IMG/VR virus record: IMGVR_UViG_3300027909_000045
Location: 1-37,079 of that record
Reading direction: 5' to 3' (one strand)
Source of the DNA: a virus
Length of the DNA stretch: 37,079 nt
The position numbers and the translations under genes are program-made. The notes under the pieces were generated by a model, which searched no databases, was not told the origin of the DNA, and saw only the letters and a program-made list of their open reading frames with translations. Positions 7,593-37,079 of the stretch are shown here, piece by piece. Position 1 is the first letter of the stretch; each line of letters begins with the position of its first letter.

Positions 7593-7850
7593 ATGAAGAC
7601 CTTCGAGGAGATTGACCGCCCGCCGAAGAATCGCCGCAGCATCCACGATGACCTGGCCTGGGACCGAGAGCTAGAGGCGGCGCTACGAGCGACGCAGCAG
7701 AGTGGGAAGGCAGTTATCGTCCCACTCGCCAGGTTTCATTCCAGCCCGGCAAAGGGACGGCTCTGGAAGGCCGGGCTCAAGGTCCATCATCGCGTCTGTT
7801 TGGACCGAGAGCACGTCGCCGCTTGGGTAGACGATGCTCCGCAAGCCTGA
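7593..7850 (+). CDS. Small hypothetical protein
   Basis: 85 residues, rich in charged and aromatic residues, with no recognisable motif. The middle (KAVIVPLARFHSS) and end (VCLDREHVAAWVDD) look like a small alpha/beta fold. The ATG at 7593 has no clear ribosome binding site, unlike its neighbours. It follows the hairpin at 7558-7581 and overlaps the polymerase-module start by 17 nt. Confidence 0.5.
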   Translation: MKTFEEIDRPPKNRRSIHDDLAWDRELEAALRATQQSGKAVIVPLARFHSSPAKGRLWKAGLKVHHRVCLDREHVAAWVDDAPQA

Positions 7851-9180
7851 CTCCTGCCGGGGCTGCCCCTTCTACCAGAACGGGTACGGGTTCGTCCCGG
7901 ACGAGCTGCGTGAGAGCGCCCCGCTGCTGATCGTCGGCCAGAATCCTGGCCACGAGGAGGAGGCTGCCGGGCGCCCCTTCGTCGGCAAGACCGGGGAGGC
8001 CATGGAGAAGGACTTCCTGCCTCTGACCGGCTTCAATCGCTCCGAGGTCTCCCTGGGGAACGCCCTGCGGTGCCGCCTGAACGGCTCCAACGAGCTGCCC
8101 CCGCTGAATGACGTGGCTACGCGTCAGGCCATCGCGCACTGCCACCGGGCGCACTTCCAGATGCCCCCAGGGACGCAGCTCGTGCTGACGCAGGGGGCCT
8201 ACAGCATGTGGGCCCTGACGGGCGAGGGTCTGGCCAAAGGCCGCACCGTCAACTCCTGGCGGGGCTACCTGCTACCGTACAACCCACCGCCAGCTCCGCC
8301 CCTCCTGGCCAGCGACATCTGGACTCCGGGGCCCGAGGAGCTGCCGGTCCTGGTGAGCCTGCACCTGGCGGCGATCTTCCGGGACCCGGCCATGAAGGTC
8401 CCGGCCCGCCGCGACTGGAGCAAGGTGCCGCTGATCCTGGCCCGGAAGTGGCCCCTGCCCCTGGTGCCAATCCGCCAGGAGCCGCTGGAAGCCATGAAGG
8501 GCACATGGAGTTTCGACACCGAGTATGACCCGGCCACGGGGCACCTGATCCGCTACTCCATGTCCGACGCCCGGGAGGTGCGGGTGGTGGAGCGGGAGGA
8601 CATGCGGACGGTGCAGGCTATGCCCGGGTCCACGCTCGTTATGCACAATGCGCCAGCCGACCTGCCCTACGTGGACCGGGACCTGTTCCAGGGGCCCTAC
8701 GACCTGGAGGACACGATGTACGAGCACGCGGTGCTCTGGCCCGGGGCCACCGAGGACGATGAGGAGAAGTCTGGGGGCATTCGACACACTCTGGAGTTCC
8801 TGGGCTCCATGTACGCCCGGACGAACCGCTGGAAGCACCTCATGCAGATCAATCCCCTGGTGTACTCCGCTGGCGATGCCCTGGGCACCATCGACGCCCA
8901 CAACGCCATGGCGGCGGAGTTCCGACGCGACGACCGGAGCTGGTGGTACTACCGCCAGGTGGTGCTGCCCCAGGCGCGGGTGATTGCCCGGGCCAAGCGG
9001 TACGGCCTGGCGCTGGACCAGCCGAAGGTCCGGGAGTTCTACGAGGACCTGGCCGTGCGGGCGCACGACGCAGAGCTGAAGGCGCAGGCGGCCGTGGGGT
9101 GGCCCATCAACCTGAACAGCAACCCGCAGCTCGTGGCGCAGCTCTACGAGCGGGAGCAGGTACACCGGAGGCGTCGCTGA
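7834..9180 (+). CDS. UDG-like domain fused to 3'-5' exonuclease (N-terminal half of split family A polymerase)
   Basis: 448 residues. 1-185 is a family 4 uracil-DNA-glycosylase-like domain with Fe-S cysteines 8, 11, 80 and 103 and motif 1 VGQNPGHEEE followed by GRPFVGKTG. The position of the catalytic Glu is Gln36, and the second motif is HLAA (His177) instead of HPSA, so glycosylase activity is doubtful. From about 222 a DnaQ-type exonuclease follows: FDTEY (Asp228, Glu230), MHNAPADLPYV and a YSAGDALGT segment. The end (INLNSNPQLVAQLYE) is the thumb start of a family A polymerase, and the ORF then stops. Phage SPO1 DNA polymerase is a known UDG-like/exo/pol arrangement, normally in one chain. 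The remaining polymerase is the next ORF. Confidence 0.85.
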   Translation: MLRKPDSCRGCPFYQNGYGFVPDELRESAPLLIVGQNPGHEEEAAGRPFVGKTGEAMEKDFLPLTGFNRSEVSLGNALRCRLNGSNELPPLNDVATRQAIAHCHRAHFQMPPGTQLVLTQGAYSMWALTGEGLAKGRTVNSWRGYLLPYNPPPAPPLLASDIWTPGPEELPVLVSLHLAAIFRDPAMKVPARRDWSKVPLILARKWPLPLVPIRQEPLEAMKGTWSFDTEYDPATGHLIRYSMSDAREVRVVEREDMRTVQAMPGSTLVMHNAPADLPYVDRDLFQGPYDLEDTMYEHAVLWPGATEDDEEKSGGIRHTLEFLGSMYARTNRWKHLMQINPLVYSAGDALGTIDAHNAMAAEFRRDDRSWWYYRQVVLPQARVIARAKRYGLALDQPKVREFYEDLAVRAHDAELKAQAAVGWPINLNSNPQLVAQLYEREQVHRRRR

Positions 9181-10280
9181 TGCCTGGCCGACGCAAGAAC
9201 CCCTTCAACATCAGCCTCGACCGCCTGGCGGAGCTGAAGAAGCAGGGCGCGCAGTCCGCCGTCCTGGATGCCCGCCTGGAGTTCGTCGGCGCCGACAAGT
9301 ACCGGGGGACCCTGGAGAAGCTGCTGGGCCTGGAGGTCTGCTACCCGGACATGAAGCCCACGCAGGCTGGGGGCCGCTGGAGCACCACGGACCCGCCCGC
9401 CCCGGGCTTCCCCACCGACGCCCGAGCCAAGGAGTCGAACCTCCCGCCCCTGCGCCACTGCTTCCGGCCCCACAGGGGCTTCTACTGGCTGGCCTGGGAC
9501 TTCGACGCCATCGAGGCCAAGATCGTAGCGCTGCTCAGCGGGGACGAGGCGGACATTGAGGCGTTCAACCGGGGCTGGGACATCCACACCCTGACCGCCT
9601 GCGGGATGTTCCGGCTGGAGCGACCCCCGGACCTGACGAACGCCCTGCACAAGGCCGAGAGCTGCGCGGAGTGGCGCCGTGCCGTGCGCTGGGAGGGCAA
9701 GGACGACCTCCGCCGCAACCTGGCCAAGACCGGCCGCTACGCCTGTAACTACGGCCCGGACGAGTACGCCATGCTGAACGCCCGGGGGATCGAGAAGCTC
9801 GGGCTCAGCCACAAGGAGCTGCTGGCCGCTGGCCGGGCCTACCTGGCCTCCAAGCCGAAGCTCGTGGCCTGGAAGCAGGCGACCTGGAACCGCTGCAAGC
9901 AGGACCGGATGGCCCGGACCTTCCTGGGGCTGCGCCGCATGCTGTTCGGGAAGCCGGACGAGATGGCGCGGGAGGGGCTCAGCCACGAGGTGAGCGGGTC
10001 GGTCTCCGGGATCATGAACCTGACGCTGGCCACGCTCGTCGGGGAGAGCCCTTGGGGCGAGCCCACGGGTCTACTGAACCGCCTGGACCCCCGCGTCCAC
10101 CTGGCCATGAACGCCCACGACGGGGTGAAGCTAGAGCTGCCGGAAGACGTGCCAGTCCGCCAGGCGTTCGAGCTGGCGAAGCCCGTGGTCGAGAAGGAGT
10201 GGGAGGTCGGGCCGCACAAGATCGTCTTCACGGCGTCCTACGAGATCGTCCGGTCAGATGGCTCGCACGAGGCACTGTAG
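9180..10280 (+). CDS. Family A DNA polymerase, palm/fingers (C-terminal half of split polymerase)
   Basis: The ATG at 9180 overlaps the preceding TGA, and GGAGG at 9167-9171 sits 8 nt upstream inside the first gene, so separate translation is likely. The 366 residues hold motif A (WDFDAIEAKIVALLSGD, Asp107), DIHT at 134-137, motif B (RRNLAKTGRYACNYG) and motif C (NAHDGVKLE, Asp314). Tyr187 aligns with E. coli F762, like T7 polymerase, predicting poor dideoxy discrimination. Motif C has HDG where HDE is usual. The N-terminal 50 residues continue the thumb that the upstream ORF begins. This is the replicative polymerase of the phage, probably working as a two-chain enzyme. Confidence 0.85.
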   Translation: MPGRRKNPFNISLDRLAELKKQGAQSAVLDARLEFVGADKYRGTLEKLLGLEVCYPDMKPTQAGGRWSTTDPPAPGFPTDARAKESNLPPLRHCFRPHRGFYWLAWDFDAIEAKIVALLSGDEADIEAFNRGWDIHTLTACGMFRLERPPDLTNALHKAESCAEWRRAVRWEGKDDLRRNLAKTGRYACNYGPDEYAMLNARGIEKLGLSHKELLAAGRAYLASKPKLVAWKQATWNRCKQDRMARTFLGLRRMLFGKPDEMAREGLSHEVSGSVSGIMNLTLATLVGESPWGEPTGLLNRLDPRVHLAMNAHDGVKLELPEDVPVRQAFELAKPVVEKEWEVGPHKIVFTASYEIVRSDGSHEAL

Positions 10281-11607: not shown

Positions 11608-11960
11608 ACGAGGTCATCGAGATCGCTGAGGCTGCCCAGAAGCACGGGGTCCCGGCTGCCGCCCTCTGCGCCCTGCGGATCGCGGAGAACGGGCGCCCGG
11701 GACGCGAGTTCGGGGTGCTGTCGGTCAAGGCCGCGAGCTACGAGGAGCAGGTGGACGTGGCCGCGCAGAGCTTCAAGAACTCCGAGGCCCGGTACTCCAA
11801 GGCCACCGGGAAGTCCGCCCGCAAGGACGGCCGCTACACCACGGACTTCCTCACCTTCTTCTCCGCCCGCTGGGCGCCCATCGACGCCGACAACGATCCC
11901 CAGGGCCTCAACTTGAACCACGCTCGGAACCTCATCGCTGCCTACGGGTGGTTCGCGTGA
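11604..11960 (+). CDS. Lysozyme/transglycosylase-like muralytic enzyme
   Basis: 118 residues, ATG at 11604 overlapping the previous stop. The sequence ALCALRIAENGRPGREFGVL, then a YEEQVDVAAQS helix, and a C-terminal FTFFSARWAP..DADNDPQGLN block resembles phage glucosaminidase/transglycosylase proteins, which carry a catalytic Glu in the first helix (ENG) and RWAP-x-x-NDP near the end. It is therefore the best candidate for cutting peptidoglycan in this window. No signal peptide, so release would need a holin, or the protein may be virion-associated. Small membrane genes lie just upstream. Confidence 0.55.
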   Translation: MNEVIEIAEAAQKHGVPAAALCALRIAENGRPGREFGVLSVKAASYEEQVDVAAQSFKNSEARYSKATGKSARKDGRYTTDFLTFFSARWAPIDADNDPQGLNLNHARNLIAAYGWFA

Positions 11961-12706
11961 AGACCCTTCTCCTGGACATCGAGACCGCCCCCAACAAGGC
12001 ATACGTCTGGGGGCTGTGGGACCAGAACATCGCCATCAACCAGGTGGAGGAGAGCGGCTACGTCATGTGCTGGGCGGCCCAGTGGCTCGGCCAGGCCAAG
12101 GTCTACTTCGCGGCAGACTGGCAGCACAAGGCCGCGTCCAAGATGCTGCGCCCGGTCCACGAGCTGCTGGGCGAGGCGGATGCCGTCGTCCACTACAACG
12201 GCCTGAAGTTCGACATCCCCACGCTCCAGAAGGAGATGCTGAAGCACGGCCTCCAGCCCCCTGCCCCGTTCAAGCAGGTGGACCTGATGCTGGCCGTGAA
12301 GCGCGCCTTCCGGTTCGAGAGCAACAAGCTGGACTACGTGGCGCAGGCCCTCGGCCTGGGGGCGAAGGTGCGGCACCCGGGCTTCGAGATGTGGATTGCC
12401 TGCATGAAGGGTGATCCGGCTGCGTGCCGCCTCATGGAGAGATACAACCGGGGCGACGTGGCGCTGCTGGAGAAGCTCTACAAGCGCCTCCTGCCGTGGC
12501 TCGACCGCCACCCGAACATGAGCGCCCTCGCCGCCGGCCGCGACGTGTGCCCCAAGTGCGGCAGCGCCAACACGCAGGCTCGAGGAACCGTCGTCGCCAT
12601 CACGCGCCGGTATCGGCGCTGGCAGTGCCAGAGCTGCGGGGGCTGGTTCCGCAGCACCCGCTCCATCGAGGGCCAGTCGGCCCGCACGACGCACATTGGA
12701 GGCTGA
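11957..12706 (+). CDS. DnaQ/YprB-like 3'-5' exonuclease with C-terminal zinc ribbon
   Basis: GTG at 11957 overlaps the previous TGA and gives 249 residues beginning KTLLLDIETAP (Asp7, Glu9). VVHYNGLKFDIPTL (Asp86) and YNRGDVALLEKLY provide the later acidic motifs of the RNase H-like exonuclease family (PF13482-type). Residues about 197-225 add CPKCGSAN and WQCQSCGGWF, a zinc ribbon for nucleic-acid binding. It may proofread, repair or degrade DNA alongside the polymerase exonuclease domain. Confidence 0.8.
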   Translation: MKTLLLDIETAPNKAYVWGLWDQNIAINQVEESGYVMCWAAQWLGQAKVYFAADWQHKAASKMLRPVHELLGEADAVVHYNGLKFDIPTLQKEMLKHGLQPPAPFKQVDLMLAVKRAFRFESNKLDYVAQALGLGAKVRHPGFEMWIACMKGDPAACRLMERYNRGDVALLEKLYKRLLPWLDRHPNMSALAAGRDVCPKCGSANTQARGTVVAITRRYRRWQCQSCGGWFRSTRSIEGQSARTTHIGG

Positions 12707-12707
12707 G

Positions 12708-13568
12708 GTGGAGAAGAAGCCTATCCTCGTTCTGTACCACGGGAACTGCCCGGACGGCTTCACCGCTGCCTGGGCCGTCCACAAGGCCCTGGGCGAGGCC
12801 GCCGAGTACCGCCCCTGCAATTACGGAGAGCCGCCCGTGCCCGAGGCGGAGACGCGGGACCGGGACGTGATCCTGGTGGACTTCTCCTACCCCCGGCCCA
12901 TCCTTAACGGCTACGCCGTGCAGGCCCACAAGGTCGTCGTCCTGGACCACCACAAGACGGCCGAGGCGGACCTTCGGGACTGGAAGGGCGGGCGGGTCTT
13001 CTTCGACATGGAGCGCAGCGGTGCTGGGATCGCCTGGGACCACTTCCACGGCAAGCCCCGCCCGGCCATCGTGAACTACATCGAGGACCGGGACCTCTGG
13101 CGCTTCAAACTGCCCCACAGTCGCGAGGTCTCCGAGTTCCTGTTCTCCGTGCCCCGCACGTTCGAGATGTGGGACGAGGCGGCGGCGGACCTGGAGCAGC
13201 ACTTCGACACGGTGGTCCACACCGGGACGATCCTCCTGCGCTCCAAGCAGGAGCGCGTGAAGGCCATGTGCAAGCACGTCCGCTGGCTGGACTTCGGCGG
13301 CGTGGCGCTGCCAGTAGTGAACGCCTCCGTGGACTTCTCGGACGTGGGGGAGTACCTGGCGGAGCGGCTGTCGGCACCCGCTGCTGGCTACTACTTCGAC
13401 CGGGCGGACAAGCGCCAGTGGGGGTTCAGGAGCAAGCCTGGTTTCGACGTGAGCGAGCTGTGCAAGCGGTACGGTGGGGGCGGACACGCGACGGCAGCGG
13501 GCTTTCAGTCCGAGATCGGTTGGGAGCCGCCGAGGGCTGCCGCCCTCCCGGACGGGACTGACGGCTAA
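12708..13568 (+). CDS. DHH/DHHA1-family phosphoesterase
   Basis: GTG at 12708 with GGAGG 5 nt upstream is preferred over the TTG at 12696. The 286 residues start VLYHGNCPDGFTAAWA (metal-binding His11, Asp16), then VILVDFSY (Asp58), LDHHKTA (80-82) and near the end GGGGHATAAGF of DHHA1. The family cleaves nucleic-acid phosphodiesters, as RecJ exonuclease or NrnA-type nanoRNase do. In this replication block, recycling of short oligonucleotides is the likely job; substrate is inferred only. Confidence 0.85.
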   Translation: MEKKPILVLYHGNCPDGFTAAWAVHKALGEAAEYRPCNYGEPPVPEAETRDRDVILVDFSYPRPILNGYAVQAHKVVVLDHHKTAEADLRDWKGGRVFFDMERSGAGIAWDHFHGKPRPAIVNYIEDRDLWRFKLPHSREVSEFLFSVPRTFEMWDEAAADLEQHFDTVVHTGTILLRSKQERVKAMCKHVRWLDFGGVALPVVNASVDFSDVGEYLAERLSAPAAGYYFDRADKRQWGFRSKPGFDVSELCKRYGGGGHATAAGFQSEIGWEPPRAAALPDGTDG

Positions 13569-15787: not shown

Positions 15788-16452
15788 CAGTAAGCTCCCT
15801 TGAAGTCCGGCCTGTCCGGCATGTCGAAGCTGACCACGGCATAGTGACCGGGGTGGTGGCGTTCCCAGACCTCGCTGGGGCGCACCTGGAACCGCTCGTC
15901 TCGCTCCCACTTGTTCAGGAGTGGGTGCGTCATCAGACTCTTGAAGCACACCCGGCGCACGCCGATGTCCCACAGGGCCTCCACGAGGCTGTGGCTGCCC
16001 TGGGTGAAGACCTGGGAGCCCACCACCCACTGCACCCAGACCTCCTGGGGGCCTACGGAGCGGTCCAAGAGTCGGGCATGAGCGGGCCTGCCACCCCGGT
16101 ACCCGATCCACCAGGCCGCGTTTGGTGCGTCTGGGGCCTTCTGCTGGACGTGGTAGGCGAACTTCGCCGCGTCGTCCAGGGCCAGCCAGGCTGCTCGCTG
16201 CTCGGTCTGGTCGGGGTGGTCATGGCGAACTGACACGATGTCCTGCCACACGTCGCTGGCCCAGACTTCCTTCTCCGTGTTCAGCGCAAGAACCGCCTCC
16301 AGGGCCTCCGGTTCATCCCGCTCGAAGACCCGCACGTCGTCCCCAGCCTTGTCCACCGGGGCTCGCTTCTTGGGGACGCGCTCCTGGTGGTCAGAGTCCA
16401 AGACCGGCTCCGTCTCCAGAGCGTTTCGCAGCTCGTCCGCGAAGGTCATCAT
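15787..16452 (-). CDS. Hypothetical protein between two putative iron enzymes
   Basis: 221 residues. The N-terminal 60 are acidic and probably disordered. The rest is an alpha/beta domain rich in Trp (AAWWIGYRGG, VWVQWVVGS) with a conserved-looking end (FKSLMTHPLLNKWERDERF, then RPSEVWERH). It overlaps both neighbours by a few bases. No family recognised. Its strand order faintly recalls the GNAT-like genes at 25055-25995, but I cannot support that. Confidence 0.55.
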   Translation of the reverse strand: MMTFADELRNALETEPVLDSDHQERVPKKRAPVDKAGDDVRVFERDEPEALEAVLALNTEKEVWASDVWQDIVSVRHDHPDQTEQRAAWLALDDAAKFAYHVQQKAPDAPNAAWWIGYRGGRPAHARLLDRSVGPQEVWVQWVVGSQVFTQGSHSLVEALWDIGVRRVCFKSLMTHPLLNKWERDERFQVRPSEVWERHHPGHYAVVSFDMPDRPDFKGAY

Positions 16453-17066
16453 CGGAACTTCGGGCCTCCCAGCCAGCCGATCAGGATGCGCCGCTCGCCC
16501 TTCGTAACCGGCAGCGCCCGGTGCTGGATGAAGCTGGGGAAGACGTAGGCCGTCCCCTGATCCCGGGCCAGGATGCGATTCGGCTCGGCGTCGAAAATCT
16601 CGAACTCCCCGCCCTCGTACTCCTCACCGGGCCTGGAGAGCTGAAGAATCACGGCCAGCTTGCGCTGGAGGCGCCGCCAGTTGTCGCCCCGATCCTGGTG
16701 CCAGGCGAAGTGCCCGGCCTCGTCAGCGGAGTACCGGACGTAGTGCAGGTTGTCCTGGAAGCCCCACACGTCGTACTGCCAGAAGTGCGCGTTGGCCTCC
16801 TGGGCGATGTCCCCAAGCATGTCGTACAGGGGCTTCACCGCTGGGTCCTCGTGGGGCCAGGGCAGCCACACCGCCTGGCAGCTCCTCCGGGAGCGATCCT
16901 CCCGCATGCCCTCGTGGAAGCCGACCTGCCCTGGGGCGCCCTTCCGCGCCAGGTACTCGTCCCCGATGCGGCGAATCTCCGCGAGCTGCTCGGGGCGCAG
17001 GAACGGCGCGGCGATGCGGATGTTCGGGTCCGTCATCGCGGGGAACGGCGCAATCGGGTACGTCAT
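16449..17066 (-). CDS. 2-oxoglutarate/Fe(II)-dependent oxygenase (prolyl-hydroxylase type)
   Basis: 205 residues. The cupin core shows FAWHQDRG (His123, Asp125), GGEFEIFD, and VFPSFIQHRALPVTKGERRILIGW (His182 and the 2OG-binding Arg at 192/193). These are the HxD...H iron triad and cosubstrate Arg of P4H/PKHD-like oxygenases. The family hydroxylates protein side chains, nucleic acids or small molecules. Lying between tail genes and a ferritin-like gene, it could modify a virion protein or a host surface component; target is inferred. The ATG overlaps the previous stop (TAATG). Confidence 0.85.
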   Translation of the reverse strand: MTYPIAPFPAMTDPNIRIAAPFLRPEQLAEIRRIGDEYLARKGAPGQVGFHEGMREDRSRRSCQAVWLPWPHEDPAVKPLYDMLGDIAQEANAHFWQYDVWGFQDNLHYVRYSADEAGHFAWHQDRGDNWRRLQRKLAVILQLSRPGEEYEGGEFEIFDAEPNRILARDQGTAYVFPSFIQHRALPVTKGERRILIGWLGGPKFR

Positions 17067-25054: not shown

Positions 25055-25531
25055 TCAGTCCTCTCGTGCGCGGCGGAGCGGAGCGCCGAGCGTCCGTTCC
25101 ATGACCACGCGAGTCGTCTTGAATCCGTACAACCGTTCCCAGACCGCAGCATCGCGGCTGGTGCCCATGAGCATCTGTGTGGCGCCGTAGGACCGGCCCC
25201 ACGAATCCATGAAGTCGATACACGCCTGGCGGAGCCGCTTGCCCACCACCACATCCGTCTTCGCCTGGAGGACTAGAACCCACTGGCGGCCGTGGGCACC
25301 ATCCAGGCAGCACAAGCAGTGGCCCACGAGGCGGCCCGAGCCCTCTACGAAGGCCAGGAGGAGAATCCCGGGGTCCTGCGCGATGAGCCGTCGCACCCAC
25401 TGCTGGGCCAGGGCCTCGCCGTTGTACTCGGTCGGCGTCTCCCGGGCCATCTTCAAGATGCGCTGCACCGCGAAGGGCATCAGCAGGCCGGTCTCCTTGC
25501 TCAGGGGATCGACCTTGAGGAGCCGGATCAC
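25055..25531 (-). CDS. GNAT-like protein, copy 2 of a tandem pair
   Basis: The GTG at 25531 overlaps the preceding stop (GTGA) and gives 158 residues. The sequence LLLAFVEGSGRLVGHCLCCL, a central beta strand pair, AATQMLMGTSRDAAVWERLYGF and a final basic strand follow the GNAT acetyltransferase order. The Q/RxxGxG/A coenzyme A loop is not clear. It is a paralog of the next gene upstream (25528-25995), sharing RVDP/KVDP starts, GLLMP, LLLAFV, VGHCL/AGHCL and the TSR motif. It may modify a virion protein or be a structural derivative of the fold. Confidence 0.5.
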   Translation of the reverse strand: MIRLLKVDPLSKETGLLMPFAVQRILKMARETPTEYNGEALAQQWVRRLIAQDPGILLLAFVEGSGRLVGHCLCCLDGAHGRQWVLVLQAKTDVVVGKRLRQACIDFMDSWGRSYGATQMLMGTSRDAAVWERLYGFKTTRVVMERTLGAPLRRARED

Positions 25532-25995
25532 GCCGTGGCGCCGTCCAGGGCTGGGAGTTCCCGCACCAGGATGCGTCGGTACTCCCGGAAGCCTGCCGCC
25601 TTCTCCCACGCCTTCTCGCTGCGGGAGGTGGTCATGACGATGGCTGCGACCTGGTGCTGGCGGCCGAATGCCTCCACGGTCTCCAGGGCCAGCCGCAGGG
25701 CGTCCCCGACGTTCCCATCCGCCTTGAGCTGGTGGATGAAGGCCACGCGGGTCCCGTCCTCGATGGAGGTGATGTTCGCCAGGCAGTGCCCTGCCACCGC
25801 GCCCTTCTCGTCCACGAAGGCCAGGAGCAGCGAGCCCTGGGCCGCCGCCCACACGGGCAGGAGCAGCTCCTTGGTCACGATCACCGCGTTCAGCTCCGGG
25901 GAGAGCTGCTTGCTGTACTCGATCATGCGCTGCGTGATCTGGGGCATCAGCAGCCCCGCCACAGGGTGATAGGGGTCTACCCGGACCACCTTCAC
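25528..25995 (-). CDS. GNAT-like protein, copy 1 of a tandem pair
   Basis: 155 residues, ATG 25995, coupled to its neighbours. MKVVRVDPYHPVAGLLMP, then GSLLLAFVDEKGAVAGHCLA, GTRVAFIHQLKAD and VAAIVMTTSRSEKAWEKAAGF. The match with the downstream copy runs along the whole length, so the pair arose by duplication. The usual CoA-binding loop is not obvious in either. Acetyltransferase-like genes do occur among podovirus head genes; their virion role is not known to me. Confidence 0.5.
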   Translation of the reverse strand: MKVVRVDPYHPVAGLLMPQITQRMIEYSKQLSPELNAVIVTKELLLPVWAAAQGSLLLAFVDEKGAVAGHCLANITSIEDGTRVAFIHQLKADGNVGDALRLALETVEAFGRQHQVAAIVMTTSRSEKAWEKAAGFREYRRILVRELPALDGATA

Positions 25996-26912: not shown

Positions 26913-28181
26913 TTAGGCCGGAAGCTCCGAGGCGAAGCTCGAACCCGTCTCGATCCGCGCGAAGTAGGCGTTGTCGAGGAGGAAGCACTTCCACATCAGC
27001 TTGGAGCCCACCTTCCTGCCCTGTGCCAGTGGGTTGGCCCACGAGCTACCGGCCGGGGTGATGTACGACTCCAGGCTCATGCCGTTGAGTTCCACCCGTC
27101 CGAACGCATCCTTCCCGAAGACCCATGCCACGTAGACCTCCACGCCGCTCGCGGGGTTCGCGGGCGGGTTGAGAGTCTCCGTGCTGGCCGTGTACAGGCC
27201 GTCCAACGCGGCACTCACGAAGCCCGCCGCAGCGTTCTTGATGACACGCTTGAAGGCACCGGAGCCGTTGTTGTCCGTGTACACGTCGTAGACGTAGTTG
27301 GTGCTCGAAGGCATCGTGATCGTGGCCGTGTTCGCCACCACCGCGCTCTGAACAGAAATCTTCCGCTCGTAGAACGAGTTGGCGTCCTTCGCCACAACCG
27401 TCACCTTCCGCGCACCCGCGACCGCCGAGACCTGAGCCTTCTCCGCCGTAGTCGCGCTGGTATCCGGGGCGGGAACGCCCTTGAACACGGGGAGGTAGTT
27501 CCCCCGCTTCCAAGACACGTCCATCCACTTACCGATCTCGGCGTACTCCAGCTTGCGAACCTCGGAGAACTGCGCCGCACCCTGGAACAGCGTGTCGGAG
27601 CCCACGATGTCACCCTCTTGCTGAGGAGCCATCACGCCTCCGTACAGACCGCTCTGGTACTGAGCAGCACCCTTGGCGCGCAGAGAGACCGTAGCCTTGA
27701 GCACGACCGCTGAGGTCAGCTTATCCGTCGCTGCGAGGTTGCCCCGCGCAGTGATCGCACCCGGGAAGTAGACCGAGGTGCCACCGAGGAGAACCTGAGC
27801 GATTTCCCGCTCCAGGCACTCCGTCATCGCCAGGCCCGTTCGGTCGATAGCGACCTGGAGGGCTGGGTGAGTCGTGGTGATAAGCGCAACGTCCGTGAGA
27901 AGGGCCACGATGCCCCACTGCTCGACAGTCACGTCCACGTTCTCGATAGCCAGGGCGACCGCATCAGGCGGCACGCCTTCGGTCAGCGGCGCGTTCGGCG
28001 CGGCCATCCGCTTGTGCCGCACGACACGGAGGGACTTACCCATCCGCTGCGGGAGCGAGTAGCGCGTGGCGAACGAACCGAGAACCATCTGGCGCTCCGC
28101 GATCCGGAACGTCTGGCGCTCGATGTAGACGTTCGGCGCGTCATTCGACAACGCCGAAAAGTTTGTTACTGCATCTGCCAT
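26913..28181 (-). CDS. Major capsid protein (N4-gp56 family)
   Basis: 422 residues, ATG 28181. Features typical of N4-gp56 capsids are the N-terminal arm, FRIAERQMVLGSFATRYSLP, APLTEGVPPDAVALAIENVD followed by VTVEQWGIVALLTDVALITTT, LAMTECLEREIAQVLLGG, and a C-terminal strand block. Residues about 240-320 (VSAVAGARKVTVVAKDANSF and following strands) look like an inserted Ig-like domain exposed on the shell. There is no clear ribosome binding site before the ATG; a 231-nt structured leader precedes it. Confidence 0.85.
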   Translation of the reverse strand: MADAVTNFSALSNDAPNVYIERQTFRIAERQMVLGSFATRYSLPQRMGKSLRVVRHKRMAAPNAPLTEGVPPDAVALAIENVDVTVEQWGIVALLTDVALITTTHPALQVAIDRTGLAMTECLEREIAQVLLGGTSVYFPGAITARGNLAATDKLTSAVVLKATVSLRAKGAAQYQSGLYGGVMAPQQEGDIVGSDTLFQGAAQFSEVRKLEYAEIGKWMDVSWKRGNYLPVFKGVPAPDTSATTAEKAQVSAVAGARKVTVVAKDANSFYERKISVQSAVVANTATITMPSSTNYVYDVYTDNNGSGAFKRVIKNAAAGFVSAALDGLYTASTETLNPPANPASGVEVYVAWVFGKDAFGRVELNGMSLESYITPAGSSWANPLAQGRKVGSKLMWKCFLLDNAYFARIETGSSFASELPA

Positions 28182-29472: not shown

Positions 29473-31347
29473 CTATCCCTCCGTGGGGCTGGCCGCGAGG
29501 GCCCGCCCGATGATCGCAGCGGCATCACCTGGGCTCCCAGGGACGCTAGGCCCTCCAGGGCCCGGGGGCGGCCCGCCAGCCTCGTTGAGGGCCTGGGCCC
29601 GCATCAGAGCCAGCCGGTCGGGGGACATGGGGCGCACGATGTTCTCCAGGCCCCGCTCGCCCAGGCCGTCCCGCCAGGCCCGCTTGATGAGGTCCGGCCA
29701 GTTCAGCTCGAAGCCCTGGGCGTTCAGGCCCGGCTCCGCCTTGACCAGGAGCGTCAGAGCCCCCACGAGCTTCTGGGCGCGCATCTGCTGGTCCTGGGAC
29801 TGGAGGGTCCCGGTCCACCGGAAGCGCCAGGAGCCCGCCAGGTCCTCCACGGTCATGGTGGCGGGCGGGTAGTCGGCCGTGCCGGGCACCCGCATGATCT
29901 GCATTCGGGGGACGAACATGAGGGTGTTCCGGTAGTGGTCCCCCAGAGAGGGCGTCATGATCTCCTGCTCGATGATCTCGGCCAGGTCCTTGATGTCGCC
30001 CATGGCCAGGGAGATGAGGCCCGTGACGGCGAAGCCCGCTCGGGGCATGCCGCGCGTGGGCTGACCCTCGGAGTAGCCACCGCCACCGCCGAGGCTGTTG
30101 ATGAGCGCCAGGGTCTCCTGCTTGGCCCGCACGGCCGAGAGGCTCACGTCCGGGACGTTCAGGACCTTGGCGCCCTCCACGGACTGCATCTGCCACTTCT
30201 TCCGGGGCCCGAAGACGAGGGAGTCAGCACGGGCCACCTGGTTCACGTCCACCACGACCGGGGGCACGGAAGCGATGACCCGAGACTCCTCCCCCTGGTT
30301 CACCTGGTCGTTGTAGAGGACCTGGAGGGGCTCCAGGTCGTCCATGATGCCCGTGGTGTGGTGCTCCCCCGGGATCGGCCGTCCGAGAGCCATGCGGTAG
30401 GGCGGGATCGGGTAGCGGGCTCGCTGGAGGCGGGTGATCCTGGGCGCCTTGGGGACGTTCCAGACCAGCCACGCCTTGCACTGGGCCCCGTTCATGGGGA
30501 ACCAAATCTCCGTGAGGGCCACGAAGCCCTGTGGCGGCATGGACGCCTTCTGCTCGCCCTGGCCAGCGAAATCGGGCTGAATGCCCTGACTCACTGCGTC
30601 AGGCTCCGTGAGGCCCTGGTGGGCCAGGCGGGTCTTCCAGTGGTGCGGCCACTCGGGCTTCCCTAGCTCCGAACGGTCGATGGGGTCGCAGTGCCCTTTG
30701 GTAACGTGCTCCTCGTACTCACCCCAGGGCATCATTACGTCCTCGAACTGAATCTGGGCGTCGGTGACCGAGGTGACGGTCTCCGGCCATACGTAGAACT
30801 GGAAGGGGTCCACGACCCGCTGGACGGGCCAGACCTCCTGGATGCGGCCGATCCGCCCGGCGAAGCTCACGGGCACGTCGATGACCTGGACGGTGTTCTT
30901 CACGATGGCCCGGTCGTAGAGCTGAAGGCACCGAAAGAGCTGGGTGATGTTCCTGCGGGCCGGGATGCGGTCGGCGTCGGTGTGCAGGTAGGCCATGAAG
31001 ACCCGCACGGCCTGGGCCTGCCGTCCGGCCGCCAGGTCGAAGTCGTCCCCGGGGTACACCTCGAAGAAGTCGGGCGACGGCATGAGCATCTGGGTGCCCC
31101 GGATGACGTTGCGCTCGATGGCCCTGCGCGCCACAGGGATGTAGTGCTTGAAGTCGTCGGACTTGTACTGGGCCCGGCCCTGCTCCTTGGCCATCCACGC
31201 GGCGTGGTTGTTCAGCCAGGACAGCTCCCGGTCCTTGCGCCGGTTCCGAACCTGGGTGCAGAGGTCCCCCAGGCGCTCTGCGAGCTGCTCCCTCAAGGCG
31301 GGTGAGGAACCCGTCTCCTGCTTGTCCTGTCCTTCGGCCGTGGCCAT
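29473..31347 (-). CDS. Portal protein (podovirus type)
   Basis: 624 residues, ATG 31347 overlapping the terminase stop (TGATG). The start is helical and basic (RNRRKDRELSWLNNHAAW), RGTQMLMPSPDFFEVYPGDD and the central stem/wing region with MDDLEPLQVLYNDQVNQGEESR and ALGRPIPGEHHTTGIMDDL follow podovirus portals, which keep such a Gln/Asn/Glu-rich helix before the tunnel loop. Position directly after the terminase gene supports the call. Disordered Pro/Gly tail at the C-terminus. Confidence 0.7.
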   Translation of the reverse strand: MATAEGQDKQETGSSPALREQLAERLGDLCTQVRNRRKDRELSWLNNHAAWMAKEQGRAQYKSDDFKHYIPVARRAIERNVIRGTQMLMPSPDFFEVYPGDDFDLAAGRQAQAVRVFMAYLHTDADRIPARRNITQLFRCLQLYDRAIVKNTVQVIDVPVSFAGRIGRIQEVWPVQRVVDPFQFYVWPETVTSVTDAQIQFEDVMMPWGEYEEHVTKGHCDPIDRSELGKPEWPHHWKTRLAHQGLTEPDAVSQGIQPDFAGQGEQKASMPPQGFVALTEIWFPMNGAQCKAWLVWNVPKAPRITRLQRARYPIPPYRMALGRPIPGEHHTTGIMDDLEPLQVLYNDQVNQGEESRVIASVPPVVVDVNQVARADSLVFGPRKKWQMQSVEGAKVLNVPDVSLSAVRAKQETLALINSLGGGGGYSEGQPTRGMPRAGFAVTGLISLAMGDIKDLAEIIEQEIMTPSLGDHYRNTLMFVPRMQIMRVPGTADYPPATMTVEDLAGSWRFRWTGTLQSQDQQMRAQKLVGALTLLVKAEPGLNAQGFELNWPDLIKRAWRDGLGERGLENIVRPMSPDRLALMRAQALNEAGGPPPGPGGPSVPGSPGDAAAIIGRALAASPTEG

Positions 31348-32855
31348 CAGCGGATGCTCCCTTTCACGCGGGCGATCTCAGCGTCGATCTGCTCTGGGGT
31401 GGCGTGGCCGCCCATCCAGGCCCACCCGGGGGACGGCGCACCGTCGCGGCGGGGGGAGTTCTGGCGGGCCAGCTCGTCTAGTAGCCCGGGATCGAGCAGC
31501 TCCATCGAGATGTAGTTGAGGAACACGTACCTGACCGAATCCATGTAGTCGTCGTAGAACCCGTCCTTGACCGGCTTGTCCTGCGGCCGGTTCTTGGGCA
31601 GGTGGTAGCCGCCCGCGAAGCCCTCGATCACGTTCCGGCACTCGCGGTTGACACCCACCACCGGGAGCCCGCACTTGCAGGTGGGCAGCCGCAGGAGCTT
31701 CCGAATCTGCTCCAGGCCCGGGTCCAGGTTCGTGATCTTCCGGAACCGAAACTTCAGGTTCCACGGGGGCCGGGAGAGCCGGATGATGGCCCCGGGGCCC
31801 TTGTCGCTCACGGCGGCCCCTGCCGCGTCCCCGCAGTCGATGACCATGCTGGCGCTCACACCGGGGAACCGGAGCTTCGTCTCAGCCAGCACCAGGTCCC
31901 CGAGGGCCTCGGCCTCTGTCTGCTTGGCGTCCATTTCGTGGTGGATCATCCAGTGCAGCAGGCCGACCTTGCAGCGCCAGCACTGGTGCCAGGTCACGGC
32001 CGGGTGCCGGTAGCCGAAGTCCCAGCCCCGGATCAGGGGCGACGGGTGCAGCCCCGGGGCCCCCACATGCTTCTCGCGGCGGAAGGGCTCGTACACGGGC
32101 GGGCCCTCCGGGGTGAACCCGAAGTCCCCATCCACGACCCGCTTCACGTCCGCCTCTGGCAGGCCCATGAGGTCCGCCAGGTAGCCCGGGGGCAGGTGCG
32201 GGTTCGCCTTCGTGCTGCTCTTGATGAGCCGGAAGGAGGTCTCGACCTTCTTCCCGAACAGCTCCACCGAGGTCGTGCGGACGCCCGGCTCCTCCCCGAA
32301 CCACTTCACGATCCAGTGCTGCCGGTTCGGCGGGTTCGTGGTCAGCAGGCCCTTCAGGTACTTCCCAGCGTGGGGAAGCCGCAGGCGCCCCATGAGGCCA
32401 GTGAACGTATCCTCGGGCTCCTGCTGGGCCTCCTCCAGGTGGAACCAGCCGTACTCCGGGCCCAGCCAGCGCCCGATGTCCTTGGTCTCCCGGAACAGAA
32501 TCTCCGAGTCATTCGGCAGGATGATCCGGTGCGGGTAGCCGTCCCGGTTCTCTCGGCCCTTCCACTCGACCCCAGCCCGCTCCAAGCACTGGAGGTACAC
32601 GGGCAGCGGCGAGTCGTGCATCAGGGAGTAGCTGCGCCGTCCGACGAAGCCCCGGTTGCCCTTGATCGACAGGGACAGCAGGACCGCGAGCGCCACTGTG
32701 GGCAGCGTCTTGGCCGAGCCGTACCCGCCCACCGAGGCCACGAACTTCTCGGGGGCCTCGATGATCTCCGTCTGGTGCAGCAGCGGATGCTTGTGAGTGC
32801 CCCGCTTGGGGCAGCCGTCCGCCTGGCAGATCGGGAACAGGTCCAGGACCTTCAC
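31347..32855 (-). CDS. Terminase large subunit
   Basis: 502 residues. Walker A VGGYGSAKT (about 42-50), Walker B with catalytic Glu in WFHLEEAQ (about 137-144), motif III LLTTNPP, then nuclease motifs GWDFGYRHPAV, VIDCGDAAGA and YDDYMDSVRYVF with the metal-binding Asp residues. It also carries an N-terminal C-x4-C/His site (CQADGCPKRGTHKH) and a C-x-C insert (PTCKCGLPVVG), a zinc-like addition. It packages DNA through the portal encoded next. The small subunit is not obvious; the genes just upstream are small and unassigned. Confidence 0.85.
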   Translation of the reverse strand: MKVLDLFPICQADGCPKRGTHKHPLLHQTEIIEAPEKFVASVGGYGSAKTLPTVALAVLLSLSIKGNRGFVGRRSYSLMHDSPLPVYLQCLERAGVEWKGRENRDGYPHRIILPNDSEILFRETKDIGRWLGPEYGWFHLEEAQQEPEDTFTGLMGRLRLPHAGKYLKGLLTTNPPNRQHWIVKWFGEEPGVRTTSVELFGKKVETSFRLIKSSTKANPHLPPGYLADLMGLPEADVKRVVDGDFGFTPEGPPVYEPFRREKHVGAPGLHPSPLIRGWDFGYRHPAVTWHQCWRCKVGLLHWMIHHEMDAKQTEAEALGDLVLAETKLRFPGVSASMVIDCGDAAGAAVSDKGPGAIIRLSRPPWNLKFRFRKITNLDPGLEQIRKLLRLPTCKCGLPVVGVNRECRNVIEGFAGGYHLPKNRPQDKPVKDGFYDDYMDSVRYVFLNYISMELLDPGLLDELARQNSPRRDGAPSPGWAWMGGHATPEQIDAEIARVKGSIR

Positions 32856-33731: not shown

Positions 33732-34015
33732 CAAGTCAGCGTGAAGCCGCCACTCTTGGTGCGGCCCACGCCTCCGGCATCGGACGCCACGAACTCTGTT
33801 GCCCAGAACCCCTTGGCGTCGCTCGCCTGGGTCTGGTGCTGGTAGGCAAAGGTCCCCGTGGCGAGGTTCGTCATGGTCACGGCGTTGAGGGCCACCGTAC
33901 CGTCCGGCTTGAACAGGGTCAGCTTGACGCCCTGCGTCGGGTTGAATAGCTGCGGCGGCTTCTGAAGGAAGTCGTAGACCTGGACCTGGATGTAGAGCTT
34001 CGTCCCCGCCCTCAT
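33731..34015 (-). CDS. Small beta-sandwich virion-like protein
   Basis: 94 residues: alternating strands such as KLYIQVQVYDFLQKP, VKLTLFKPDGTVA and TGTFAYQHQTQ, then ASDAKGFWATEFVASDAGG. This resembles Ig-like or bacterial-adhesin-type modules found in phage decoration proteins. Coupled by ATGA to the gene above and by TGATG to the zinc knuckle. Confidence 0.5.
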   Translation of the reverse strand: MRAGTKLYIQVQVYDFLQKPPQLFNPTQGVKLTLFKPDGTVALNAVTMTNLATGTFAYQHQTQASDAKGFWATEFVASDAGGVGRTKSGGFTLT

Positions 34016-34167
34016 GTGGCTGCCACTCCCCTGATGTCAACCTTCATCTGAATGATCTCCACGATGTACGGGCTCGCGATCACGGGCAGCGTTGGCGGGC
34101 CTTGTAGCTCTGGCGGGCCTGGCGGACTCGACGTGGACGTGATGACCGGAAAGACGACAACCGGCAT
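34012..34167 (-). CDS. 51-residue Pro-rich hypothetical protein
   Basis: ATG 34167 to TGA 34012-34014, both ends overlapping neighbours. MPVVVFPVITSTSSPPGPPE, then a short strand-forming end (SPYIVEIIQMKVDIRGVA). Too short for the usual ORF cut-offs but in tight register with its neighbours. Function unknown. Confidence 0.45.
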   Translation of the reverse strand: MPVVVFPVITSTSSPPGPPELQGPPTLPVIASPYIVEIIQMKVDIRGVAAT

Positions 34168-34344
34168 CTAGTCCACCAGCTTCCCGTTCAGCATGATGCG
34201 TTGCGAGTGGTTCACGGTGAGCGTGGGTGGCGTCGTGCTGCGATCAGTCTTGCGCCGTACAACCTCAACCGTGATGCCGTCCGGCGCCGTGATGACGATA
34301 GGCTCGACCGTGCCAGCCACGACCGGCAGCGTCGCCGCAGGCAT
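34168..34344 (-). CDS. 58-residue beta-rich hypothetical protein
   Basis: ATG 34344 overlaps the stop of the secreted protein gene; TAG is followed directly by the next start (TAGATG region). MPAATLPVVAGTVEPIVITA, EVVRRKTDRS and LTVNHSQRIMLNGKLVD look like a small beta hairpin set. Starts like the next small protein (MPxxxxPV), which hints at duplication. Function unknown. Confidence 0.45.
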   Translation of the reverse strand: MPAATLPVVAGTVEPIVITAPDGITVEVVRRKTDRSTTPPTLTVNHSQRIMLNGKLVD

Positions 34345-35099
34345 TACTGAATCAACCCACCGCCGCAGACGTGGAAGCCTGGGCTACAGCTCCCCACTGT
34401 GACTGGGGCCTTCACGTCGATGGCCAACCCACGAATCTGCTGGGACGACGAGAACGAATAGAACGGAGTCGTATCGGTCGTGTCGTCGCGCCACCACGTC
34501 GAGTAGTGCTGCCCGTCCGTGCCGTCGTTGGTGTCCGCCAGCGAGGTCCAGCCGCTCTCGACCGTCTGCGTCCCGGAGGCTGAGGCCTTCCACGTCACGT
34601 AGGGCCGGTTGCTCGCACTGGAGAAGCCGGACATATTCACGGTCAGCGAGCTGGCAACCTGCTCGGCGGGGTCACACTGCCCCGCCGCCGCGCTGCCGTT
34701 GGTGCCACCGGTATCGACACCGGTCCACTCAACGATCGACCAGCCACCGTTCGTCGCGCCCTCGCCGCCCGGCATCGTGATCGTCACGGCGCCAGTCTGG
34801 TTGCTGCTGACCATCGTGCGATAGACGAACAGGCGCCGACCCACCTGACAGTGCAGCACCCACGTCGCGCCCGTGCTCGTGACAGCCGGGTCCCCGGTGC
34901 AGCAGGCCGACAGGCCGATGCTCAGCAGCTCAAGCCGGTTCGCCGTCAGCGTGACGGAGGACGTGACGTAGGTTCCGCCAAGCCCGGTGTCGGTGGAGCT
35001 GGCGGCGGCGGAGCCCGAGACCAGCGCACCAGCAGGAGCCGCGTCTACGACCGGCGCAAGCGCCAGGACGAGGAGCAGCGCAAGGAGTACGTGCTTCAT
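34344..35099 (-). CDS. Secreted Cys-containing beta-rich protein
   Basis: ATG 35099 gives 251 residues; the open frame further upstream reads through the next gene. Residues 1-22 are a signal peptide by composition (MKH, then LLALLLVLALAPVVDA). The mature part is Ser/Thr/Gly-rich and beta-prone with cysteines as CC, LHC, GQC and a final SCSPGFHVCGGG, suiting disulfides outside the cytoplasm. A signal peptide on a late phage gene is unusual. It may be an exported enzyme, immunity factor or adhesin. No catalytic motif found. Confidence 0.6.
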   Translation of the reverse strand: MKHVLLALLLVLALAPVVDAAPAGALVSGSAAASSTDTGLGGTYVTSSVTLTANRLELLSIGLSACCTGDPAVTSTGATWVLHCQVGRRLFVYRTMVSSNQTGAVTITMPGGEGATNGGWSIVEWTGVDTGGTNGSAAAGQCDPAEQVASSLTVNMSGFSSASNRPYVTWKASASGTQTVESGWTSLADTNDGTDGQHYSTWWRDDTTDTTPFYSFSSSQQIRGLAIDVKAPVTVGSCSPGFHVCGGGLIQ

Positions 35100-36622
35100 G
35101 ACTTGCACCCCGCTGGGATGGTGCCGAGGAGGGTTTCGACATCGGCCGTCACGTTTGCAGTGCCCGAGCGCGTCGAGCGCCCTCCGGAGCAGCTCGTGCA
35201 GGGGCCGGTATACGTGCCAGCGATCGCGAGCGCGTCGATGATCCGCTGGTTCATCGGCCACGGCCAGAGCGGCGCCGCCGTGGTTCCACCCGTCCCGTCC
35301 TGGCGCACGCCGTCGATGTAGCGCCAGCAGAGGTTGGCGCCGCCCGCATCAGACCAAGGCGAGGCGACACTTCCCGCCGTAGACCCGGTAGAGTGCTGCG
35401 TCACCGCATAGGCCGAGGTATTGATGCTGTTACCGCCCTGCGTGACAGATGTGATCCGCGTAGCCACACCACCGGAAGGCGTCGGGCTACAGGGCCAATC
35501 TCCGAGCTGGAACACCGGGATACCCCCAGCACCAGCAAAACCGCTCGGCACGATGCCGTAGACATCTCGCAGCGTGACGTTGTTCTCGCGGCGAAGGTTC
35601 ACCAGCACGCTCGGGTTGGATTGCGAGGAGATTGAGTCGCTGCTTCGCAGATAGAACAGGCTGCCCAGAAGCCGAATCTGCTGGTTCTCACCGCAGTTGG
35701 CTTCTGAGCCCAACGGACCTACGGCTTGAAAAATCTCGGCGTTGTTCCGGACGACGTTCGGCGGGGAGCCGCCCGTGTACGTCGTCGGCATCGAGAGCGC
35801 GTACCACGTCCCGATGACGTTTTCCATGAGCGTCTGCGAGTTGGTCGCCACGCTGCCGTAGGCTGGCTGGAAGGCGTGTGTCGGCCCGTCGTCGTACATA
35901 TTGCCTTCGGTGCGTGCAAAGCAGCGGCGGCAGATGTTGCCGACGTTGCCGTTGAAGACGTGCCAGCTGCTGCGGCACATACCGAAGATCGCGATGTCTT
36001 CAAAGAGATTGAGCTGCCCGTGCGCGATCTCCACACACGAGGAGTTGGAGTTGCCCGTGTTGTCCCAGAAGATCGACCGCCGAACGATATTGCTGTCGGA
36101 GCCTGGAGGGGTGTTATCGTCGATGCAGTCACCGAAGACGGCGACCTGCGGCCCTCCGTGCTTGAAGTTCACTCCCTGAATGACGAAAAAAGAGTTCTGA
36201 CAGAACTTCAACGCGGGACGAGCGAATTGGCCGTCAATCAGTGCGCCACCGTCGTTCAGGGCTTTAACGGTGATCCGCGCCGAGCTTGTGCCCGTCATGC
36301 CCGCCGTAGGAGCAATCATGAAGTTGGCGCCCTGATAGGTCCCGTCCATGAGGCAAAGCGTCTTGCCTCGGACTTGCGACTGGCCGAGCGCCCAGAAGTC
36401 AACGGGCCGGAACGGTGAGCCCTGCGACAGCCCGCTATGCGCGGGGTCGCCATCAGGCGCCGGGGCAGCGAAGTAGTCACACGAGACCGGGGGCGCGAAG
36501 ACGGGCGGCGCAGGACGGATACCCGTACCTGGCCGGTGCCCGCGCATCGGGCGCGACAGCGGCGCCTCGACGGTGCCCAGAAGCAGTGCGAACAGGATGG
36601 CCAGACCGAGAAGTCGCTTCAT
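35096..36622 (-). CDS. Secreted right-handed beta-helix protein (spike/depolymerase-like)
   Basis: 508 residues with an N-terminal signal peptide (MKRLLGLAILFALLLGTVEA). The body is a right-handed parallel beta-helix by pattern: ITVKALNDGGALIDGQFARP, FFVIQGVNFKHGG, IVRRSIFWDNTGNSN and VVRNNAEIF show repeated strand-turn rungs with Asn ladders. There are about a dozen cysteines (for example SSC, NICRRC, GPCTSC), consistent with export. Tailspikes and polysaccharide lyases use this fold but normally lack a signal peptide. It overlaps its neighbours by 4 nt. Confidence 0.65.
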   Translation of the reverse strand: MKRLLGLAILFALLLGTVEAPLSRPMRGHRPGTGIRPAPPVFAPPVSCDYFAAPAPDGDPAHSGLSQGSPFRPVDFWALGQSQVRGKTLCLMDGTYQGANFMIAPTAGMTGTSSARITVKALNDGGALIDGQFARPALKFCQNSFFVIQGVNFKHGGPQVAVFGDCIDDNTPPGSDSNIVRRSIFWDNTGNSNSSCVEIAHGQLNLFEDIAIFGMCRSSWHVFNGNVGNICRRCFARTEGNMYDDGPTHAFQPAYGSVATNSQTLMENVIGTWYALSMPTTYTGGSPPNVVRNNAEIFQAVGPLGSEANCGENQQIRLLGSLFYLRSSDSISSQSNPSVLVNLRRENNVTLRDVYGIVPSGFAGAGGIPVFQLGDWPCSPTPSGGVATRITSVTQGGNSINTSAYAVTQHSTGSTAGSVASPWSDAGGANLCWRYIDGVRQDGTGGTTAAPLWPWPMNQRIIDALAIAGTYTGPCTSCSGGRSTRSGTANVTADVETLLGTIPAGCKS

Positions 36623-37079
36623 CGGATCATCGCGTTGAAGGTCACCTCATCGACGGCCGTGTTCCCCGTCCCGCCGATGGCGGTGTGGATACCGACGCCG
36701 ATGCCGACCGAGAAGTCGATGCCGTCCGCTGGGAGCGGAGGACAGATGCCCGCGCCCGAGGCGTTGCCGGGGATCAACCACGGCGCCCCGTACACGGTGT
36801 CCGTGCCAGGCACAGGTGGGTTGTTCGTGTTGTTGTAGAACGTCACCCACCGGGGCGAGGCGTTCGTGTTGACGACGCAGAAGCCGTACAGGGTGCCCGG
36901 GCTCGCCTTGAGCCGGTTCCCGTTCGTGGAGGCCGCTGAGCGGAAGCCGACCAGCGATGTGCCGTTCTCGTACACCGTGATGAACGGGCGGGTCGTGGTG
37001 GCGCGCAGGGTCCCGTTCGCCGTGCCCGAGGTGAACAGGGACACGCAGACGCGGGCGTGAGTCGCGGAGCCGAACCAAC
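36619..37079 (-). CDS. Virion-like beta-rich protein (5' end outside window)
   Basis: The frame is open to the right edge (WFGSATHARVCVSLFTSGTA before the GTG at 37044), so the N-terminus is missing. The visible 153 residues are beta-rich with FITVYENGTSLVGFR, RWVTFYNNTNNPPVPGTDTV and IPADGIDFSVG-like turns (here LPADGIDFSVG), as in small phage capsid-decorating or tail-tip proteins. It also holds several cysteines. Coupled to the beta-helix gene. Confidence 0.55.
   Translation of the reverse strand, partial: WFGSATHARVCVSLFTSGTANGTLRATTTRPFITVYENGTSLVGFRSAASTNGNRLKASPGTLYGFCVVNTNASPRWVTFYNNTNNPPVPGTDTVYGAPWLIPGNASGAGICPPLPADGIDFSVGIGVGIHTAIGGTGNTAVDEVTFNAMIR

What the first reader, a model, noticed from the sequence alone, without database searches (positions are those of the whole stretch)
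34344..36622. Late phage genes with signal peptides and many cysteines
Two adjacent late genes have clear signal peptides, and the larger is a beta-helix protein with about a dozen cysteines. Virion spikes are not normally exported. They may be secreted or surface-displayed during infection, as immunity, depolymerase or competition factors, or be a bacterial gene moved into the phage.
Basis: partly seen in the sequence, partly recalled or inferred. Interest (0 to 1): 0.6.

Follow-up and report, generated by a model that had tools for sequence, protein, structure and literature searches.

The report
Phage adhesion-type proteins exported as disulfide proteins
This phage carries a row of three or four late genes whose proteins start with export signals and are rich in paired cysteines, and unrelated environmental phages do the same with tail-fibre-type proteins, which suggests these viruses fold part of their host-contact equipment outside the cytoplasm, something not usually expected of tailed phages.

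Summary
Genes A (35096-36622, 508 aa, 14 Cys, beta-helix) and B (34344-35099, 251 aa) have textbook Sec signal peptides (SPs). A near-identical longer contig adds two more upstream, C (335 aa) and D (87 aa), so four consecutive SP genes precede terminase in one operon. A is a well-modelled right-handed beta-helix (pLDDT 81), closest to secreted polysaccharide lyases. Its roughly 35 relatives sit in phages with unrelated terminases and in bacterial chromosomes, two of them beside exopolysaccharide genes, and most keep the SP.

Real export is supported by cysteines: SP proteins of these phages, outside family A, have even mature Cys counts in 33 of 36 cases, against 81 of 152 for non-SP proteins. 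In family A, Cys pairs are gained and lost together. A tail-fibre-type family exists with and without the SP, as an exact ~20-aa add-on; the Cys pair appears in two SP forms and in no SP-less one. The nearest GenBank relatives, two spring-water phages, export proteins matching a head-spike-fibre domain and a tail-fibre family.

Best reading: late, Sec-exported, disulfide-bonded, glycan-facing adhesion or depolymerase proteins. Whether they join virions after lysis or act free is undecided. Enzyme activity is unproven.

The parts
35096..36622 (-). Gene A: 508-aa Sec-signal right-handed parallel beta-helix protein, 14 Cys
36563..36622 (-). Signal peptide of A, residues 1-20 MKRLLGLAILFALLLGTVEA, AxA-type site (V-E-A)
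   Evidence: 0 of 5000 shuffles reach its score; SP kept in most relatives
35333..36487 (-). Beta-helix of A, about residues 46-430, including covarying Cys48-Cys90
   Evidence: (matches span residues 46-466)
35240..35269 (-). Family signature LWPWPMNQRI (residues 452-461), in a C-terminal cap bracketed by Cys432 and Cys506
34344..35099 (-). Gene B: 251-aa Sec-signal protein, 6 mature Cys, predicted all-beta (low-confidence model)
   Evidence: weak single-sequence similarity to SP genes next to family A in L004, L006, L026, L033, not confirmed by profile
35040..35099 (-). Signal peptide of B, residues 1-20 MKHVLLALLLVLALAPVVDA
36619..37077 (-). Gene C, 3' part; full length in L002:7671-8678 (335 aa, signal peptide MKKFLAVLALAVAALTGAAEA, 4 mature Cys)
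   Evidence: C-terminal 134 aa are 36% identical to L004:4853-5803, which has no SP and lies just upstream of that phage's family A gene
34012..34344 (-). Two small operon genes (58 and 51 aa) between B and the packaging genes, no signal peptide
31347..32855 (-). Terminase large subunit, same operon (context)
29473..31347 (-). Portal / head-tail connector (context)
   Evidence: weak phrog_332 match; matched to the annotated portal of MW202477 at 3.6e-22
26913..28181 (-). Major capsid protein (context)

Best explanation
Genes C, A and B (with D upstream) are a late cassette of host-contact proteins that are made with the virion proteins but sent through the host's Sec system. Signal peptidase removes the first ~20 residues and the mature proteins fold in the oxidising periplasm with disulfides. 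A is a secreted-lyase-type beta-helix that most likely binds or cleaves an acidic surface polysaccharide. At lysis the matured proteins are released together with the virions, and either attach to them as adhesion/depolymerase appendages or act free on capsule and matrix. Shown here: the genes, the SP sequences, the operon position, the fold of A, the Cys pairing signatures, and the SP/no-SP pairs in related families. Inferred: actual export and cleavage, disulfides, glycan activity, attachment to virions. I put export with disulfides at about 0.85; given that, virion attachment of at least some of the set at about 0.5.
For: SPs far above shuffles, and four contiguous SP genes. Most family A members in unrelated phages and in bacterial chromosomes keep an SP. 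Outside family A, SP proteins with 2 or more Cys are even in 33 of 36 cases versus 81 of 152 non-SP proteins, Fisher p 8e-6; Cys density is about double. Covarying Cys pairs in family A: C48-C90 14 of 14, C65/C71-equivalents 9 of 9 and 11, C432-C506 20 of 21. The LKQSTA tail-fibre-type family: SP forms (L009, L065, L007) against SP-less forms (Microcystis phage PP496355, L068), with an exact N-terminal extension; the Cys pair is in L009 and L065. Nearest relatives by TerL/MCP, MW202477 and MW202637, encode ten SP-like genes among their late genes, all with even mature Cys; one matches NCBIfam GTA_spike_fiber above cut-off and is homologous to annotated SP-less tail proteins of RcapMu and S-WAM2, another matches phrog_3484 tail fiber. 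Fold of A: alginate/pectate lyase-like, Z about 26-27. Bacterial homologues L050 and L051 lie beside glycosyltransferase, YdjC and DegT genes.
Against: No SignalP run, no host and no proteomics. The SP detector and gene caller are home-made; some loci share homologous SP genes, so the counts are not fully independent. Among SP-bearing family A members parity alone is only 10 of 15 even. L007's SP form of the LKQSTA family lacks the N-terminal Cys, and L074's SP gene has 11 Cys. D has one mature Cys. A has helix caps and no visible trimerisation domain, so it looks more like a free enzyme than a virion spike. The mostly conserved Lys218 is Ser in A. B has no reliable fold.
Confidence: 0.65

Rival explanations
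1. Free secreted depolymerase / conversion genes: the cassette is a set of secreted enzymes and adhesins, exchanged with bacteria, that never attaches to virions. It is secreted during infection or from lysogens to thin capsule or matrix, or to alter the host surface, like lambda lom in the tail region.
For: Family A is shared with bacterial chromosomes, twice beside exopolysaccharide genes; secreted-lyase fold with helix caps; integrase in the longer contig; lambda lom, an outer-membrane protein, is an SP gene just after tail gene J.
Against: Genes are overlapped into the packaging/head operon, with no extra promoter or terminator signal above chance. Relatives export proteins of virion-type families. 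Homologues occupy tail modules next to tape-measure or J genes.
Confidence: 0.3
2. The N-termini are not functional SPs: hydrophobic N-terminal segments that act as virion anchors or are removed by a phage protease, with the proteins made and assembled in the cytoplasm.
For: Tail-type homologues exist without SP; signal-like N-termini on P. gingivalis phage capsid proteins are thought to be cut by the prohead protease (PMC10367356).
Against: AxA sites, paired and even cysteines that track SP presence, +1 Gln enrichment 12 of 45 against 3.8% background, and SP-bearing bacterial chromosomal homologues.
Confidence: 0.07
3. Chance or annotation artefact: ordinary cytoplasmic tail spikes whose start codons or N-termini only resemble SPs.
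For: High-GC ORFs rich in Ala/Leu can mimic SPs; A has a second in-frame Met at residue 26.
Against: 0 of 5000 shuffles; conservation of the SP in distant relatives; overlapping ATGA start; Cys statistics.
Confidence: 0.03

Closest known systems
PL9 pectate lyase Pel9A (1ru4), PL6 alginate/chondroitin lyases (1dbg, 7o7a) and alginate lyase 6kfn
   Same: Right-handed beta-helix with N-cap; profile match over the N-terminal third (1ru4 E 5e-10); fold Z about 26; typically secreted enzymes (own knowledge).
   Different: Whole-length match only by fold; Pfam Chondroitinase_B below its cut-off (13.4 vs 24); catalytic residues not shown; own C-terminal LWPWPMNQRI cap with a covarying Cys pair; phage-borne.
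Phage beta-helix tailspikes (Sf6, CBA120 TSP2, Dettilon)
   Same: Beta-helix fold (Z about 22), phage late genes, glycan-facing.
   Different: No recognisable virion-binding N-domain (SP plus Pro-rich linker instead), many cysteines, helical caps, no obvious trimerisation domain.
GTA/phage head spike fibre domain proteins (NF048003), RcapMu58, S-WAM2 tail protein
   Same: Family of the SP-bearing protein in relative MW202477.
   Different: The cultured-phage homologues have no SP and only 2 Cys.
Lambda lom (exported protein gene inside the tail region)
   Same: SP gene directly after tail gene J.
   Different: Single outer-membrane protein without mature Cys; here there are rows of several disulfide-type adhesin/lyase genes.
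SP-bearing proteins of Porphyromonas gingivalis phages (PMC10367356)
   Same: Phage genes of unknown function with Sec SPs adapted to the host signal peptidase (Q-rule).
   Different: No link to tail-type families, disulfides or beta-helix was made in the passages read.
SP endolysins such as fOg44 Lys44 (PMC6116005)
   Same: A phage protein uses host Sec.
   Different: Lytic enzymes for host lysis, not adhesion-type proteins.

Membership tests
PL6 / PL9 polysaccharide lyases | Right-handed parallel beta-helix | tested here: met
PL6 / PL9 polysaccharide lyases | Family profile above curated cut-off (Pfam Chondroitinase_B) | tested here: not met
   13.4 bits against 24
PL6 / PL9 polysaccharide lyases | Catalytic Lys/Arg base and Ca-binding acids in place | tested here: inconclusive
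   Invariant D209, R233, Y255, N268 and near-invariant E208, R217 exist, but Lys218 (18 of 26) is Ser in A; the sequence match to PL6/PL9 covers only the N-terminal part
Phage tailspike | Virion-binding N-terminal domain | tested here: inconclusive
   Residues 1-45 are SP plus a low-confidence linker; no domain match found
Phage tailspike | Homotrimer present in the virion | not testable with these tools
   needs proteomics or structure
Sec-exported protein | n-, h- and c-regions with AxA-type cleavage site | tested here: met
   (own scoring, not SignalP)
Sec-exported protein | Disulfide-type cysteine pattern | tested here: met
Lambda Lom-type outer-membrane conversion protein | Outer-membrane beta-barrel | tested here: not met
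   A is a beta-helix
SP endolysin | Peptidoglycan-degrading domain | tested here: not met
   no such Pfam, PHROG or NCBIfam match in A or B

The most novel reading that the evidence does not exclude
A group of tailed phages matures part of its receptor-binding or spike apparatus outside the cytoplasm: Sec export, oxidative folding in the periplasm, and attachment to finished virions only at or after lysis, which would give disulfide-hardened appendages.
Probability: 0.38. Interest if true: 0.88.

Novelty: new variant of a known kind. Interest (0 to 1): 0.66.

Why it matters
Tailed phages are thought to assemble all their particle parts in the cytoplasm, a reducing compartment. A recurring set of tail- or spike-type proteins with cleavable export signals and paired cysteines would mean either that some particles are finished outside the cytoplasm or that phages deploy secreted versions of their host-contact proteins. 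Both are testable, and both would change how receptor-binding and depolymerase genes are predicted in viromes, where such proteins are now labelled hypothetical or read as auxiliary metabolic genes.

Tried and rejected
Alignment A1 and profiles with fragments gave no searchable block. No relative of A, B or L003's 1546-aa lyase-like protein in 50,697 GenBank phages. B: only identical hits in IMG/VR; profile comparison with neighbour SP proteins not significant; AF2 pLDDT 45, not used. TerL scan of IMG/VR found only the same phage, so its upstream synteny could not be followed in close relatives. No host could be assigned: 0 tRNAs, nearest TerL 30% in spring-water phages of unknown host. Catalytic assignment to PL6 or PL9 abandoned for lack of catalytic-residue evidence. 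Disulfide distances could not be measured because model coordinates are not readable. An early notebook line that D has even mature Cys is wrong: one of its two Cys is in the SP. Ten literature searches found no description of exported tailed-phage tail proteins; that is a limited library, not proof of absence.

Full report
Observation. The two ORFs exist as stated. A (35096-36622) and B (34344-35099) lie on the minus strand and overlap as ATGA. Each begins with a classical signal peptide; no residue shuffle out of 5000 reaches either score. A has 14 Cys, B has 6. A second IMG/VR contig of 45,296 bp (L002/G001), identical to the window over the 7,080 bases compared, continues past the window edge: gene C (335 aa) and gene D (87 aa), directly upstream, also have signal peptides. 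Downstream on the same strand come small genes, then terminase, portal and capsid. Four contiguous SP genes among 70 is unlikely by chance (about 8e-5). No promoter or terminator signal above chance separates them, so they look late.

What A is. A is unmatched in Pfam, PHROGs and NCBIfam at their cut-offs and absent from GenBank phages, but has about 30 further relatives in IMG/VR and 12 in bacterial or archaeal MAG contigs. Shared features are ACTHYASPSG near the start, GTYTG, ALNDG, and a C-terminal LWPWPMNQRI block. Most intact members keep an SP; clear exceptions are L035 and L042/L043. The AlphaFold2 model (26-sequence alignment) is a right-handed beta-helix with pLDDT 81. Nearest solved folds are secreted alginate and pectate lyases (6kfn, 1ru4, Z about 26-27), with phage tailspikes lower at about 22. 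The profile matches 1ru4 and chondroitinase B over the N-terminal part only. Catalytic residues are not established: a mostly conserved Lys218 is Ser in A.

Is export real? Three lines independent of the SP sequence say yes. First, parity: outside family A, SP proteins of these phages with at least two Cys are even in 33 of 36 cases, non-SP proteins in 81 of 152 (Fisher p 8e-6); within family A parity alone is not significant. Second, covariation inside family A: Cys48 and Cys90 are present or absent together in all 23 sequences with both columns; two further pairs behave nearly as well. Third, matched pairs: the LKQSTA tail-fibre-type family begins directly at its domain in a cultured Microcystis phage and in L068, but has an exact ~20-residue SP in L009, L065 and L007. 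A Cys pair (QC...CYVV) is found in L009 and L065 and not in the SP-less forms; L007 lacks the N-terminal Cys. The residue after the cleavage site is Gln in 12 of 45 phage SPs against a 3.8% background, reminiscent of the Q-rule reported for P. gingivalis phage proteins (PMC10367356); the window's own proteins do not show it.

Generality. Carriers of family A have no detectable window-type terminase. The family lies in tail modules next to tape-measure or J-type genes in several of them and is often flanked by further SP genes: lyase-like, Ig/LamG/Kelch, beta-helix. L074 has four SP genes around 2.4-7.8 kb and was reached through a different protein. The nearest GenBank genomes by terminase and capsid, spring-water phages MW202477 and MW202637 (complete), carry ten SP-like genes among late genes, all with even mature Cys. 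One belongs to the head-spike-fibre domain family NF048003 and is homologous to SP-less tail proteins of cultured phages; another matches tail fiber phrog_3484. Six cultured control phages have 3 such genes in 230 by the same score; these two genomes have 7 in 82.

Origin. Bacterial family A genes are chromosomal in appearance; L050 and L051 lie beside glycosyltransferases, YdjC and DegT genes. In the tree bacterial members fall among phage ones and two phages fall inside a bacterial group; A pairs with L004 (97/97), whose upstream neighbour is an SP-less homologue of C. This shows exchange, not direction.

Interpretation. The safest statement is that A, B and C are exported, disulfide-bonded, late, host-contact proteins, and that A is a polysaccharide-lyase-type beta-helix. 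Whether they attach to virions at lysis or act free is open. For attachment: virion-type families carry SPs in relatives, and the operon and module position. For free action: the lyase-like caps of A, homology to bacterial chromosomal genes, and the lambda lom precedent of an exported gene in a tail region.

Limits. SP and gene calls come from my own scripts; related loci are not fully independent; no host is known; no wet data. The literature search was limited to open papers and found no report of this pattern.

Noticed in passing
window 7834-9180 and 9180-10280: Family-A DNA polymerase split over two adjacent genes: the first has a uracil-DNA-glycosylase domain (Pfam UDG) and matches the middle of phrog_17, the second carries DNA_pol_A. 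A separate RNase H/exonuclease-like gene lies at 11957-12706.
   Followed up: partly
window 25055-25531 and 25528-25995: Tandem paralogous ~155-aa proteins next to the capsid genes that look acetyltransferase-like by eye; no Pfam match.
   Followed up: partly
L002:3247-4077 (-), outside the window: Phage-encoded protein with a tyrosine-phosphatase-type CxxGxGRTG loop and Cys-rich tail (Pfam Y_phosphatase 2.5e-4).
   Followed up: partly
window 16449-17066: 2OG-Fe(II) oxygenase gene in the late region (phrog_61 1.7e-26).
   Followed up: no
window 12708-13568: DHH/DHHA1 phosphoesterase (phrog_4771 7e-85).
   Followed up: no
L011:2895-13504: Six consecutive signal-peptide genes (130 to 1129 aa) on one viral contig, including two beta-helix proteins.
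   Followed up: partly
L003:11530-11889, L005:14071-14412, L010:5439-5783: Small SP-bearing fibronectin-like protein with two mature Cys shared by three family A carrier phages.
   Followed up: no
viral loci, 45 strong signal peptides: Gln at +1 after signal peptidase cleavage in 12 of 45 phage SPs, which may hint at hosts with a Bacteroidetes-like Q-rule for some carriers.
   Followed up: partly
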